From Pseudomonas sp. FP198 (lineage in GTDB: Bacteria; Pseudomonadota; Gammaproteobacteria; Pseudomonadales; Pseudomonadaceae): a DNA stretch of 64,000 nt. The translations under genes were made by a program, and so were the position numbers. The notes beneath the pieces are model-generated. The model did not search any database, was not told the DNA's origin, and saw only the letters and a program-made list of their open reading frames with translations. Below are positions 19,452 through 41,400 of this stretch, one piece after another; positions within the stretch are counted from its first letter, which is position 1, and each line of letters opens with the position of its first letter. The stretch spans positions 2,559,501-2,623,500 of the forward strand of contig NZ_CP117452.1 of NCBI RefSeq assembly GCF_030687895.1, read 5' to 3'.

Positions 19452-20603
19452 ATGTTGCGTAAAACATTCCTGGCAACACTTTGCGCCAGCGCTGCCCTGG
19501 CCCTTTCAACGCCGGCTTCTGCCGCGTCAGTCCAGCAATTCAAGGCCGAGGACGGCACCGTCGAAGTCACCACGGTCACCCGGGGGCTGGAGCGGCCTTG
19601 GTCCGTGGCGTTCCTGCCGGACCAGCAGGGCATGCTGGTCACGGAGCGTCCCGGTAACCTGCGATGGGTGAAGGCCGACGGGAAATTGTCTGCACCGTTG
19701 AGCGGTGTTCCCGATGTCTGGGCCAAGGGGCAGGGTGGTTTGCTGGATGTTGTGCTGTCTCCGGACTTCAAACAGGATCGCACCGTCTACCTGTCGTATG
19801 CCGAGGCGGGCGAGGATGGCAAGGCCGGCACGGCGGTGGGCCGTGGGCAGTTGTCCAGCGACATGACGCGCCTGGACAACTTCGACGTGATTTTCCGCCA
19901 GCAACCCAAGCTCTCGACGGGCAACCATTTCGGTTCGCGCCTGGTATTCGACCGGGACGGCTATCTGTTCATCACCCTGGGGGAAAACAACGACCGTCCG
20001 ACCGCACAAGACCTGGACAAGCTGCAAGGCAAGATCGTGCGGATCTATCCCGACGGCAAGGTGCCGGACGACAACCCCTTCGTGGGCCAGAAAAACGTCC
20101 GTCCGGAGATCTGGTCCTACGGCTTGCGCAATCCCCAAGGCGCCGCGCTCAATCCCTGGAATGGCACGCTTTGGGAAAACGAGCATGGTCCCAAGGGCGG
20201 TGACGAGCTGAACATCATCGAGCGCGGCAAGAACTATGGCTGGCCGTTGGCGACTCACGGTGACAACTATTCCGGCGCGCCGATTCCCGAGGCCCAAGGC
20301 AAGACCGCGAAGGGTACCGTCGGCCCCCATCACGTCTGGCAGGTATCGCCAGGGCTCAGCGGCATGGCGTTCTACGACAATGACCGGTTCAAGGCCTGGC
20401 AACGCAACGCGTTTGTCGGGGCGCTGGTTTCCAGGGACCTGATTCGCCTGGAGTTCGACGGCGACAAGGTCGTTCATGAAGAACGTTTGCTCGGCGAGCT
20501 CAAGGAGCGTATCCGCGATGTTCGCCAGGGGCCGGATGGTTTCCTCTATGTGCTGACGGACGACGATGACGGTGCGCTGTACAAGGTCGGGCTGAAGCAA
20601 TAG
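19452..20603 (+). CDS. PQQ-dependent sugar dehydrogenase-like protein (YliI/GDH-B family)
   Basis: 383 aa from the ATG at 19452, preceded by AGAAGGAAG. A signal peptide ends near ASA (~residue 24). The six-bladed propeller family is recognisable from GLERPWSVAFLPD, GQGGLLDVVLSPDF, TGNHFGSRLVFDRDGYLF and RNPQGAALNPWNG-LWENEHGPKGGDELN, then GKNYGWP. The His within TGNHFGSRL and the Arg/Asn of YGLRNPQ match the quinone and active-site region of soluble aldose dehydrogenases. It probably oxidises aldoses in the periplasm with PQQ; the physiological substrate is unknown. Confidence 0.9.
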   Translation: MLRKTFLATLCASAALALSTPASAASVQQFKAEDGTVEVTTVTRGLERPWSVAFLPDQQGMLVTERPGNLRWVKADGKLSAPLSGVPDVWAKGQGGLLDVVLSPDFKQDRTVYLSYAEAGEDGKAGTAVGRGQLSSDMTRLDNFDVIFRQQPKLSTGNHFGSRLVFDRDGYLFITLGENNDRPTAQDLDKLQGKIVRIYPDGKVPDDNPFVGQKNVRPEIWSYGLRNPQGAALNPWNGTLWENEHGPKGGDELNIIERGKNYGWPLATHGDNYSGAPIPEAQGKTAKGTVGPHHVWQVSPGLSGMAFYDNDRFKAWQRNAFVGALVSRDLIRLEFDGDKVVHEERLLGELKERIRDVRQGPDGFLYVLTDDDDGALYKVGLKQ

Positions 20604-20616
20604 CCGTGCTATGAAG

Positions 20617-20766
20617 TTGTGGCGAGGGGATTTATCCCCGCTGGGCTGCGCAGCAGCCCCAAAGAGCTTGAATGCGACCAACCTGGCACTCCCTGGTGGC
20701 AGGTTTCAGGGTTGCTTCGCACCCCAGCGGGGCGGTGCGACGTTTCGCTAAATCCCCTCGCCACGG
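20617..20766. repeat. Long inverted repeat, second intergenic family (copy 1)
   Basis: Ends are TGTGGCGAGGGGATTTATCC and its complement (AATCCCCTCGCCAC); the inner arms CCCCGCTGGG and CCCAGCGGGG also pair. It lies between the sugar dehydrogenase stop and the ilvA promoter. Further copies lie at 25228-25354 and 31412-31540. The central part is unrelated between copies. Confidence 0.85.
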
Positions 20767-20812
20767 ATTCACCTGCTTCTCAAGTGAACCGCTTTGGACT
20801 GGAGATTTTTCG

Positions 20813-20841
20813 TTGACTTCCCGGCCCCTCGCGGCTAGTTT
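20813..20841 (+). promoter_or_regulatory. Predicted promoter of the ilvA leader
   Basis: -35 TTGACT (20813-20818) and -10 TAGTTT (20836-20841) are separated by 17 bases. The start expected seven bases downstream falls on A20848, which is the A of the leader-peptide ATG. The -10 matches only three consensus bases (T1, A2, T6); the -35 matches five. Confidence 0.6.
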
Positions 20842-20847
20842 CCAACC

Positions 20848-20913
20848 ATGAATTCCACCGTACTGCGCAGCCAGCCAAGCATTATTACCGCCATTCCTTA
20901 TCTGGCGGGCTAG
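20848..20913 (+). CDS. ilvA attenuator leader peptide (21 codons)
   Basis: The short ORF ATG...TAG encodes 21 residues containing the run SIITAIP: three Ile codons and one Thr codon within six positions (20881-20895). It is followed at once by a strong terminator hairpin (20929-20953) and then by the threonine deaminase gene, the first enzyme of isoleucine synthesis. Leader peptides rich in the end-product amino acid are the known hallmark of transcription attenuation, as in E. coli ilv operons. There is no Shine-Dalgarno sequence, and the predicted +1 is the ATG itself, so the mRNA may be leaderless. The peptide should act only through ribosome position. Confidence 0.8.
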   Translation: MNSTVLRSQPSIITAIPYLAG

Positions 20914-20953
20914 CTGACGACTGCACCCAACCCGCCCTAGAGGCGGGTTTTTT
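20904..20953 (+). terminator. Attenuator terminator/antiterminator before ilvA
   Basis: Terminator: AACCCGCC (20929-20936), loop of five, GGCGGGTT (20942-20949), then a T-rich tract to 20956. Competing pairing: GGCGGG at 20904-20909, the last leader codons, can pair with CCCGCC at 20931-20936 and so block the terminator. A ribosome that completes the peptide to TAG at 20911 covers 20904-20909 and allows termination. A ribosome stalled on the Ile codons leaves it free. Confidence 0.82.
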
Positions 20954-20992
20954 CTTTCTGTCTCCAGGGCTTTACCCGACCAGGAGACCGCC

Positions 20993-22000
20993 ATGACCCC
21001 AACCAGCCCCGAGCAGACGCTGCTGGAACACTACGTCAAGAAGATCCTTGCCGCTGCGGTGTACGAACTGGCGGTGCCCACGCCACTGCAAGCGGCTGCG
21101 GCGCTTTCCCAGCTCTTGGGCAACCGGATTCTGCTCAAGCGCGAGGACTTGCAACCGACGTTCTCGTTCAAGATCCGCGGCGCTTATAACAAGCTCGTGC
21201 AACTGACCCCGGAGCAACGCAGCCGTGGCGTGATCACCGCATCGGCGGGCAACCACGCCCAAGGCGTGGCGCTGGCGGCTCAAGCGTTGGGTATCTCGGC
21301 GTGCATTGTCATGCCGCGCACGACGCCGCAACTGAAAGTACTCGGCGTGCGCAGTCGCGGGGCCGAAGCGTTGCTGCACGGTGAGAGTTTTCCATTCGCC
21401 CTGGAGTTCGCCCTGGACCTGGCTCGGCAGACCGGGCGGGAATTCGTCTCACCGTTCGATGACCCGCAAGTCATCGCCGGGCAGGGAACCGTCGCGATGG
21501 AGATCCTGCGCCAGCACCCAGGTCAGCTGGATGCCATTTTTGTTCCGGTCGGCGGTGGCGGCTTGATTGCCGGGGTGGCGGCTTACGTCAAATACCTGCG
21601 TCCGGAGGTGCGCGTCATTGGCGTCGAGTCGGAACACTCCGCATGCCTCCAGGCCGCACTGGCAGCAGGGGAGCGGGTGACGCTAGCGAGCGTCGGCACA
21701 TTCGCCGACGGCGTGGCCGTCGCACAGATCGGCGCCCATGGCTTCGATATCTGTCGTTTCTGCGTCGATGAAGTGATCACCGTCAGCAACGACCAGCTCT
21801 GCGCCGCGATCCGGGATATCTATGACGACACCCGCTCGATCACCGAGCCATCGGGCGCCCTGGCGGTAGCGGGGATCAAGCGCTACGTGGCGGACCGCGG
21901 AGCGCAAGGCCAGACCCTGGTGGCGATCAACTCTGGCGCCAACATCAACTTCGACAGCTTGGGCCATGTGGCAGAGCGCGCGGCGGTGGCTGCGTCTTGA
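20993..22000 (+). CDS. ilvA: Threonine ammonia-lyase, short form without ACT regulatory domains
   Basis: 335 aa fold-type II PLP enzyme converting threonine to 2-oxobutyrate. PLP lysine is Lys60 in FSFKIRGAYNKL; SAGNHAQGVA (~86-95) and the glycine loop VGGGGLIAG are present. Biosynthetic IlvA is normally ~505-515 aa with C-terminal ACT-like domains that bind Ile. This protein stops right after NFDSLGHVAERA, at the end of the catalytic domain, so allosteric inhibition by Ile should be absent. Its length resembles catabolic TdcB, but the Ile-rich attenuator upstream argues for a biosynthetic role. Downstream frames show no convincing ACT remnant. Another full-length ilvA is likely elsewhere in the genome. 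Confidence 0.92.
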   Translation: MTPTSPEQTLLEHYVKKILAAAVYELAVPTPLQAAAALSQLLGNRILLKREDLQPTFSFKIRGAYNKLVQLTPEQRSRGVITASAGNHAQGVALAAQALGISACIVMPRTTPQLKVLGVRSRGAEALLHGESFPFALEFALDLARQTGREFVSPFDDPQVIAGQGTVAMEILRQHPGQLDAIFVPVGGGGLIAGVAAYVKYLRPEVRVIGVESEHSACLQAALAAGERVTLASVGTFADGVAVAQIGAHGFDICRFCVDEVITVSNDQLCAAIRDIYDDTRSITEPSGALAVAGIKRYVADRGAQGQTLVAINSGANINFDSLGHVAERAAVAAS

Positions 22001-41055: not shown

Positions 41056-41400
41056 TCAGCCGGTTGTTTGGGCTTCAATGGGTGTATATCCGTTTCTGCG
41101 GTAACGGCTACTTAGGGTTCCGCCCTTACGGCGGGTCACTTTTTTCAGACGCCAAAAAGTAACCCAAAACGCTTTGCCCCACCACTCGGCACCTCGCCTA
41201 GGCTCGGTGTGCCCTCACTCCGGCATTGCTCCGTGGGCCCGCCGCGAAGGGCCGTCCCTGGCCCAGCGCGGCTATCCCGGCATCCATGCCGGGATGCCCA
41301 CTGCACAATGCCTGCGTTCGGCCAGCGTGGTTAACGGGGCGCCGAGATCAACATCAAAAGCAGAGCAACAGCGTGGTAAATGCCAGCACTTGCGCAGCTA
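41056..41400. repeat. Non-coding Pseudomonas mosaic repeat
   Basis: There is no credible gene in this stretch. It contains a segment (TTACGGCGGGTCACTTTTTT, CCAAAAAGTAACCCAAAACG) that I recall as recurring in many Pseudomonas intergenic regions, and a nested hairpin (ATCCCGGCATCCATGCCGGGAT at ~41274-41295, broken here as ATCCCGGC/GCCGGGAT). Inverted TCACTTTTTT/AAAAAGTA arms lie at 41137-41162. It separates the plus-strand signalling operon from the minus-strand kinase gene and may act as a terminator. Confidence 0.55.

What the first reader, a model, noticed from the sequence alone, without database searches (positions are those of the whole stretch)
20813..21060. Transcription attenuator with a possibly leaderless, Ile-rich leader peptide controls a short ilvA
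Seen directly: a 21-codon ORF (20848-20913) containing SIITAIP, a strong terminator (20929-20953), and an alternative GGCGGG/CCCGCC pairing (20904-20909 with 20931-20936) that would break the terminator. The geometry fits ribosome-mediated attenuation. Unusually, a -35/-10 pair with 17-base spacing puts the start at the A of the leader ATG, with no ribosome site, so the regulatory peptide would be read from a leaderless mRNA by 70S initiation. I do not recall such an arrangement described for Pseudomonas ilvA.
Basis: partly seen in the sequence, partly recalled or inferred. Interest (0 to 1): 0.78.

Follow-up and report, generated by a model that had tools for sequence, protein, structure and literature searches.

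The report
Leaderless isoleucine attenuator before ilvA
A short stretch before a threonine-dehydratase gene looks like an isoleucine-sensing switch whose tiny sensor peptide starts at the very first base of the RNA; related switches stand before other isoleucine genes in related bacteria and explain an RNA that Rfam lists only as a small RNA.

Summary
The interval 20878-20951 matches Rfam RF00624, "Pseudomonas sRNA P9" (86.7 bits, cut-off 43), so the RNA is catalogued, but as a small RNA. Of 95 non-redundant leaders, 90 keep an Ile doublet. Pairings 1:2, 2:3 and 3:4 are conserved, and the Ile codons lie 19-23 nt before the antiterminator strand in 94 of 94 measured. The leader is probably leaderless: a -35/-10 pair ends 6-9 nt before the ATG in 84 of 95 and a pyrimidine precedes it in 88; a ribosome site is no commoner than in shuffles (8 vs 10 of 95), against 83 of 93 downstream genes. 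A model of the leader without promoter or downstream gene finds, in one family, 13 cimA-like, 7 ileS and 1 kinase-like gene behind 21 matches. That argues for isoleucine sensing. Related leaders precede genes of unknown function. No 5' end, read-through or Ile response was measured. Leaderless attenuators have a precedent in Sinorhizobium trpL. New variant of a known kind.

The parts
20813..20818 (+). -35 element TTGACT
   Evidence: TTGAC-type in most relatives listed
20836..20841 (+). -10 element TAGTTT (weak here; TAATTT, TAACCT etc. in relatives)
   Evidence: not found by the single-sequence consensus scan
20848..20848 (+). predicted transcription start = A of the leader ATG
   Evidence: 6 nt after the -10; base -1 is C in 80 of 95 leaders; inference, not measured
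20848..20913 (+). leader peptide ORF MNSTVLRSQPSIITAIPYLAG*
20881..20886 (+). Ile codons 12 and 13 (ATT ATT), the proposed stall site
   Evidence: an Ile doublet in 90 of 95 leaders
20893..20895 (+). Ile codon 16 (ATT)
20888..20893 (+). segment 1 (CCGCCA), pairs with segment 2
   Evidence: 97.8% of cells paired, covariation
20903..20909 (+). segment 2 (TGGCGGG): pairs with 1, or with 3 as antiterminator
20929..20936 (+). segment 3 (AACCCGCC), 5' arm of the terminator
20942..20949 (+). segment 4 (GGCGGGTT), 3' arm of the terminator, followed by a T-rich tract
20878..20951 (+). match to Rfam RF00624, 'Pseudomonas sRNA P9'
   Evidence: 86.7 bits; E 2.9e-17
20982..20986 (+). AGGAG, likely ribosome-binding site of ilvA
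   Evidence: contrast with the leader start
20993..22000 (+). ilvA: threonine dehydratase, 335 aa, catalytic domain only, no C-terminal regulatory domain

Best explanation
The element is a ribosome-mediated transcription attenuator that senses charged tRNA-Ile and controls ilvA. Transcription starts at, or within a few bases of, the A of the leader ATG, so the 21-codon peptide is read without a ribosome-binding site. If Ile-tRNA is scarce, the ribosome stalls at codons 12-13 and covers segment 1. Segment 2 is then free to pair with segment 3 as that emerges (antiterminator), so the terminator cannot form and ilvA is transcribed. If Ile-tRNA is plentiful, the ribosome runs to the UAG and covers segment 2; segments 3:4 form the terminator and only a ~105-nt RNA, P9, is made. 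If the leader is not translated, 1:2 forms and termination follows. Shown here: sequence anatomy, conservation, covariation, geometry, and the association with Ile genes. Inferred: start site, stalling, Ile response, direction of regulation.
For: Anatomy. RF00624 matches 224 of 298 genus genomes (217 over cut-off), 71 of 148 in the family sample (67), 20 of 145 in the order sample (6). First ATG in frame with the Ile run in 83 of 87 leaders not chosen for an ORF. On 62 sequences: 1:2 97.8% paired, covariation 0.262 vs 0.181 shuffled; the six core 2:3 pairs form in 62 of 62, the one that varies going CG 44, UG 15, UA 3; 3:4 99.0%. The G at 20909 is invariant although outside the conserved 1:2 helix. 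A-site at the second Ile codon lies 19-23 nt before GGYGGG in 94 of 94. Leaderless start: -35/-10 ending 6-9 nt before ATG in 84 of 95; 6-8 nt in 13 of 16 and 15 of 17 leaders found by model R1, which holds no promoter; ribosome site in 8 of 95 leaders vs 10 of 95 shuffled vs 83 of 93 downstream genes. Ile specificity: in one family 13 of 21 R1 matches precede a cimA-like gene and 7 ileS.
Against: At equilibrium the terminator wins: with the stalled ribosome's footprint removed, the antiterminator is the minimum-energy fold in only 3 of 93 leaders, and in two of those (L127, L184) the script had set the terminator wrongly. The switch must therefore be kinetic (2:3 before 4 is made). The 2:3 core hardly varies: its cells-paired value (90.3%) is barely above shuffles (89.6%, reached in 7 of 500). 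For 1:2 the number of pairs with double changes does not exceed shuffles (2 vs 1.4). In the window's own fold G20909 can pair with a variable base of codon 11. Thr follows the Ile run in 64 of 66 ilvA leaders, so a contribution of Thr is not excluded. Two ileS leaders (L299, L300) have two Ile but no doublet. The consensus scan finds no promoter in this window. No 5'-end or expression data.
Confidence: 0.85

Rival explanations
1. P9 is an independent trans-acting small RNA with its own promoter and terminator, and its position before ilvA is incidental.
For: Rfam files it as a gene-type RNA named sRNA P9. S. meliloti rnTrpL shows that a terminated attenuator leader can also act in trans (passages read).
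Against: Of 169 leader candidates tested, 162 have a member of the four gene families starting within 260 nt on the same strand, and five of the other seven within 331 nt. An open Ile-run frame from the promoter-proximal ATG and conserved alternative pairings are not expected of a plain sRNA. The family follows Ile genes.
Confidence: 0.06
2. Attenuator as described, but with an ordinary 5' UTR from an upstream promoter; the -35/-10 near the ATG is not the start used.
For: The -10 is weak in this window and the scan finds no promoter.
Against: Upstream sequence information is concentrated in the -35/-10 boxes and at base -1. No ribosome site before the leader ATG. Spacing is kept in leaders found without promoter information.
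Confidence: 0.09
3. The attenuator responds mainly to threonine, the substrate, or to both Thr and Ile.
For: ACC (Thr) follows the Ile run in 64 of 66 ilvA leaders, and a stall there would by the same geometry also free segment 2 (inference).
Against: Thr follows the run in 1 of 8 KinB leaders and in 3 of the 18 cimA and ileS leaders with a run printed (my count); Ile is the common residue and the genes are Ile genes. ACC GCC is also segment 1 itself, so Thr may be an RNA constraint.
Confidence: 0.12
4. A constitutive terminator of the upstream gene plus a chance short ORF.
For: A terminator-like site is expected 0.8 times by chance in this stretch.
Against: Conservation across genera, covariation and frame; the upstream ORF ends at 20603, 326 nt before the stem.
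Confidence: 0.02

Closest known systems
Rfam RF00624, Pseudomonas sRNA P9
   Same: This window is a member: 86.7 bits, full model 1-74.
   Different: Rfam names it an sRNA. The model begins at codon 11 of the leader ORF, so the start codon and promoter lie outside it.
Sinorhizobium meliloti trpL attenuator / rnTrpL (PMC7298713, passages read)
   Same: Leader peptide whose ATG is the RNA 5' end; two mutually exclusive structures; terminated leader accumulates as an sRNA.
   Different: Trp codons and trpE(G), in an alphaproteobacterium; the 5' end is stated there from earlier work, here only predicted.
Enterobacterial ilv and thr operon attenuators (recalled, no call)
   Same: Ile codons in a leader peptide; classical ribosome-mediated switch controlling Ile or Thr biosynthesis.
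   Different: Those leaders have a ribosome-binding site and an untranslated 5' stretch, and control whole operons (recalled); here there is no ribosome site and the nearest target is a single short ilvA.
Actinobacterial amino-acid leader peptides (C. glutamicum trpE, leuA, ilvB, aroF; PMC3890552, passage read) and leaderless Cys-rich ORFs of mycobacteria (recalled)
   Same: Leader-peptide attenuation ('possibly' in the C. glutamicum passage); the mycobacterial ones leaderless (recalled).
   Different: Another phylum; the mycobacterial ones sense another amino acid (recalled). Sequences not compared here.

Membership tests
RF00624 (P9) | covariance-model score above the gathering score | tested here: met
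   86.7 vs 43 bits
Ribosome-mediated transcription attenuator | leader ORF with a cluster of codons for the pathway's product | tested here: met
Ribosome-mediated transcription attenuator | intrinsic terminator between leader ORF and gene | tested here: met
Ribosome-mediated transcription attenuator | mutually exclusive antiterminator (2:3) and protector hairpin (1:2), conserved | tested here: met
   covariation is slight for 2:3 because its core hardly varies
Ribosome-mediated transcription attenuator | stall codons positioned so that the ribosome masks segment 1 but not segment 2 | tested here: met
   19-23 nt in 94 of 94
Ribosome-mediated transcription attenuator | stalled state folds to the antiterminator | tested here: inconclusive
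   at equilibrium only 3 of 93 do; 2:3 (4 pairs or more) can form in 91 of 93 when segment 4 is left out
Ribosome-mediated transcription attenuator | read-through depends on the amino acid | not testable with these tools
   needs an expression assay
Leaderless mRNA | 5' end at or within a few nt of the start codon | not testable with these tools
   only predicted from promoter spacing
Leaderless mRNA | no Shine-Dalgarno site | tested here: met
   8 of 95 vs 10 of 95 shuffled vs 83 of 93 downstream genes

The most novel reading that the evidence does not exclude
P9 is the first-noticed member of a class of leaderless isoleucine attenuators that runs through much of the order of the window's genome and has been used before at least ilvA, a cimA-like gene, ileS, an NTF2/SnoaL-like gene and P-loop-kinase-like genes. 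Selection keeps the -10 box 6-9 nt from the leader ATG, so starting translation at the RNA end would be part of the switch. The unknown-function partners would then belong to an isoleucine-limitation response, perhaps including tolerance to isoleucyl-tRNA-synthetase inhibitors (this last step is speculation).
Probability: 0.65. Interest if true: 0.75.

Novelty: new variant of a known kind. Interest (0 to 1): 0.66.

Why it matters
It gives an RNA family that Rfam lists only as an sRNA a concrete, testable function and target. It provides a large natural set for asking how a leaderless start can be quick enough to couple ribosome and polymerase in an attenuator of roughly 100 nt. It makes sense of the short ilvA: the enzyme lacks the C-terminal regulatory domain found in the genome's second IlvA, so control of its transcription could replace feedback on the protein. 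And it links gene families of unknown function to isoleucine supply.

Tried and rejected
Single-sequence promoter scan: no hit, kept as evidence against. Rfam alternatives in the interval (anti-hemB, Trp_leader) are far below their cut-offs. NTF2-like and kinase genes were sought in the window's own genome and not found; without a positive control this shows little. Some second RF00624 matches looked like ordinary terminators without a leader (L195-L200, L202, L223) and were left out; so did one R1 match (L277). Codon-position test in the variable N-terminal part: 38 of 78 distinct substitutions at third positions, 29 synonymous and 49 not, only a weak coding signal. Equilibrium folding does not reproduce the switch. 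The 74 of 298 genus genomes without P9 were not examined for loss of the gene.

Literature: ten searches in the open-access library, nine on P9 or Pseudomonas attenuation and one on trpL. Searches returned nothing; one search listed 20 of 156 papers and 20 of 24, seen as titles and abstract openings. Passages only were read in PMC3890552, PMC3896937, PMC8297930, PMC7298713, PMC11955535, PMC3460626, PMC9308961, PMC8395346 and PMC2965389. PMC8297930 reports over two hundred P. aeruginosa genes with premature 3' ends in or near leaders; ilvA is not named in its main text, and its supplement was not opened. The original P9 paper is not held, and two-character terms such as P9 cannot be searched.

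Row accounting: nhmmer gave 375 hits on both strands in 187 loci. 184 passed an Ile-ORF and T-run filter and 191 did not; 12 loci had no kept hit, of which L126, L189 and L215 are genuine leaders lost to the filter. A run filter left 169, of which 162 had a known gene within 260 nt; five were re-added, making 167, and 95 remained after removing near-duplicates. 93 were foldable by script, 90 were offered for alignment and 62 of those 90 were aligned. In one search the start of leaders with two ATGs (L135, L192, L193) was set at the earlier ATG; their second ATG fits the leaderless spacing by eye (printout). Of 31 R1 loci looked at, 16 were scored for promoter spacing; 12 were already in the R1 alignment or near-identical to a member, and three (L269, L270, L277) were not resolved by script. 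Of 17 loci, L299 and L300 gave no ORF by script; their ATG lies 9 nt after TATCCT by eye. Where one search lists several candidate starts, the one at the model's first base was taken.

Full report
What is there. The interval 20878-20951 is a full-length match to Rfam RF00624, Pseudomonas sRNA P9, at 86.7 bits against a cut-off of 43. The Rfam model starts at codon 11 of the ORF. Its consensus structure shows the upper hairpin (segments 1:2) and the terminator (3:4), not the antiterminator. Downstream is a 335-aa threonine dehydratase with only the catalytic PALP domain. The genome has a second IlvA of 504 aa with two stretches matching the regulatory domain; RF00624 has a single match in this genome, at the window locus.

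Distribution. RF00624 matches 224 of 298 genomes of the genus (217 over the cut-off), 71 of 148 of the family sample (67) and 20 of 145 of the order sample (6); these samples overlap, and some of the weak order-level matches are not leaders. Named relatives carrying the leader before ilvA include P. protegens, P. chlororaphis, P. koreensis and P. putida (loci, read). The leader precedes both short and full-length ilvA: of the non-truncated downstream ORFs, 74 are under 400 aa and 17 longer (some short ones may be broken or mis-started). Many other long ilvA loci show no match to the leader pattern in the 260 nt before the gene (a pattern search whose printout was cut).

Is the peptide real? 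In 87 located P9 elements not selected for an ORF, the first ATG within 45 nt upstream is in frame with the Ile run, without a stop, in 83; chance would be about one third (89 were located and 2 lacked a recognisable segment 2). The four exceptions have an extra earlier ATG, with the expected ATG just after it. The N-terminal half varies; the conserved part is the Ile run and what follows. An Ile doublet is present in 90 of 95 non-redundant leaders. The Ile codons are ATT 280, ATC 44, ATA 9, whereas ilvA in the window uses ATT 5, ATC 15. In one group a one-base change in the loop shifts the frame after the Ile run, and a nearby stop is used instead (IPDWRAC*). That suggests the C-terminal residues follow RNA needs while the Ile run is what the peptide must keep.

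Is the switch real? On 62 aligned leaders in front of ilvA, NTF2-like and two kinds of P-loop gene, 1:2 is 97.8% paired with a covariation score of 0.262 against 0.181 shuffled; its best pair is GC 43, AU 15, GU 2, other 2. The count of pairs with double changes, 2, does not exceed shuffles (1.4). 3:4 is 99.0% paired with seven cells changed on both sides. In 2:3 the six core pairs form in all 62; the one variable core pair runs CG 44, UG 15, UA 3 and never C-A, but the percentage paired over all eight pairs (90.3) is barely above shuffles (89.6; 7 of 500 reach it). So 2:3 rests mainly on two further points. The last G of segment 2 (20909) is invariant although it lies outside the conserved 1:2 helix; in the window's own fold it can pair with a variable base of codon 11. 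And the geometry is tight: from the A-site at the second Ile codon to the first base of GGYGGG is 19, 20, 22 or 23 nt in 94 of 94 (12 to 44 nt were searched). A ribosome stalled there (covering about 12 nt beyond the A-site start, a recalled figure) would cover segment 1 and leave segment 2 free. The stop codon starts 7 nt after the first base of GGYGGG in 74 of 94 and within 11 nt of it in the rest, so a terminating ribosome would cover most or all of segment 2. Against: with the stall footprint removed, the antiterminator is the minimum-energy fold in only 3 of 93, although 2:3 can form in 91 of 93 when segment 4 is left out (for the window, 2:3 is -12.5 kcal/mol). The model therefore needs kinetic folding.

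Is it leaderless? In 95 leaders the best -35/-10 pair ends 6-9 nt before the ATG in 84. It scores 12 or more in 82, against 19% of shuffles, and lies 5-8 nt away in 83%, against 10% of shuffles. Sequence information upstream is concentrated in the two boxes and base -1. Base -1 is C in 80 of 95 and a pyrimidine in 88; the control, base -1 of the downstream genes, is C in 48 of 93 and a pyrimidine in 56. In the KinB group, however, base -1 is a pyrimidine in only 3 of 8. A pyrimidine followed by A is the usual bacterial start signature (recalled). A ribosome site is as rare before the leader ATG as in shuffled sequence (8 and 10 of 95), while 83 of 93 downstream genes have one. Model R1 covers only ATG to terminator, yet 13 of 16 leaders scored and 15 of 17 show spacing of 6-8 nt; the other two have 9 nt by eye. 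None of these 33 was used to build R1; three of the 16 (L267, L274, L278) are sites already seen with RF00624, and L278 (the same site as L203) was also among the 95.

What does it sense? R1 was searched in 293 genomes of the order (28 with a match), 274 of the class (4 with a match, the window's own included) and 59 of one family (16 with a match, 21 matches). In that family 13 matches precede a cimA-like gene, 7 precede ileS and one precedes a P-loop-kinase-like gene. Two of the ileS leaders (L299, L300) have two Ile codons but no doublet. The ileS naming rests on TIGR00392 at 579 and 518 bits; both are below the 621-bit cut-off, but the proteins are cut by the locus end. The cimA naming rests on NF042433 at 611 and 557 bits, under its cut-off of 950 and likewise cut, but well ahead of the 2-isopropylmalate synthase models; the other loci were named by tblastn to these two (73-92% identity). 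Four more R1 matches precede ilvA-like genes (L272, L274, L278, L279). Nothing about downstream genes was in the model, so their shared link to isoleucine is independent support for Ile sensing. Thr follows the Ile run in 64 of 66 ilvA leaders but in one of eight KinB leaders, so it is not the general signal.

A wider family. Of the 162 leaders the first gene is ilvA in 122. Others precede a ~135-aa NTF2/SnoaL-like protein (25, alone or followed by ilvA or by a kinase-like gene) and two kinds of P-loop protein (KinA 7, KinB 8), one matching AAA_33 and one only weakly matched by Pfam. The gene order leader-NTF2-ilvA in several genera suggests these were once one operon (inference).

Verdict. 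The RNA is catalogued. Its reading as a leaderless Ile attenuator, and the link to ileS and cimA, I did not find in the library searched, which lacks most subscription papers and the original P9 paper. The mechanism is of a known kind, and a leaderless attenuator is known from S. meliloti trpL. I rate the switch itself as very likely, the leaderless start as likely, and the isoleucine specificity as likely.

Noticed in passing
L134, L135, L142, L150, L155, L170, L191-L193, L206, L213, L282, L283: P9-like Ile leaders stand before an NTF2/SnoaL-like gene of unknown function, in some genomes followed by ilvA or a P-loop-kinase-like gene in apparent operon order.
   Followed up: partly
L172-L179, L182, L255, L265, L273, L284, L286: Leaders mostly ending in an Ile run and Pro (such as ARIIIIP*) precede a ~170-aa P-loop protein (MKKVAVFGKPGSGKST...); the one scanned is only weakly matched by Pfam AAA_18.
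   Followed up: partly
L285: An R1-type leader before a GNAT acetyltransferase that resembles the GNAT part of an IleRS-GNAT model (NF040702, 63 bits, far below its cut-off).
   Followed up: no
20612-20771: Mobile-repeat-like inverted repeat just upstream of the promoter; its 21-base end GTGGCGAGGGGATTTATCCCC occurs five times in the window with up to 3 mismatches.
   Followed up: partly
41235-41299, - strand: Rfam RF01731 TwoAYGGAY RNA match, 50.1 bits, partial model 45-113 of 168.
   Followed up: no
20993-22000 and L245 (own genome, near 5564273): Two IlvA paralogues: a short one without regulatory domain behind the attenuator, and a 504-aa one with two regulatory-domain stretches elsewhere.
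   Followed up: partly
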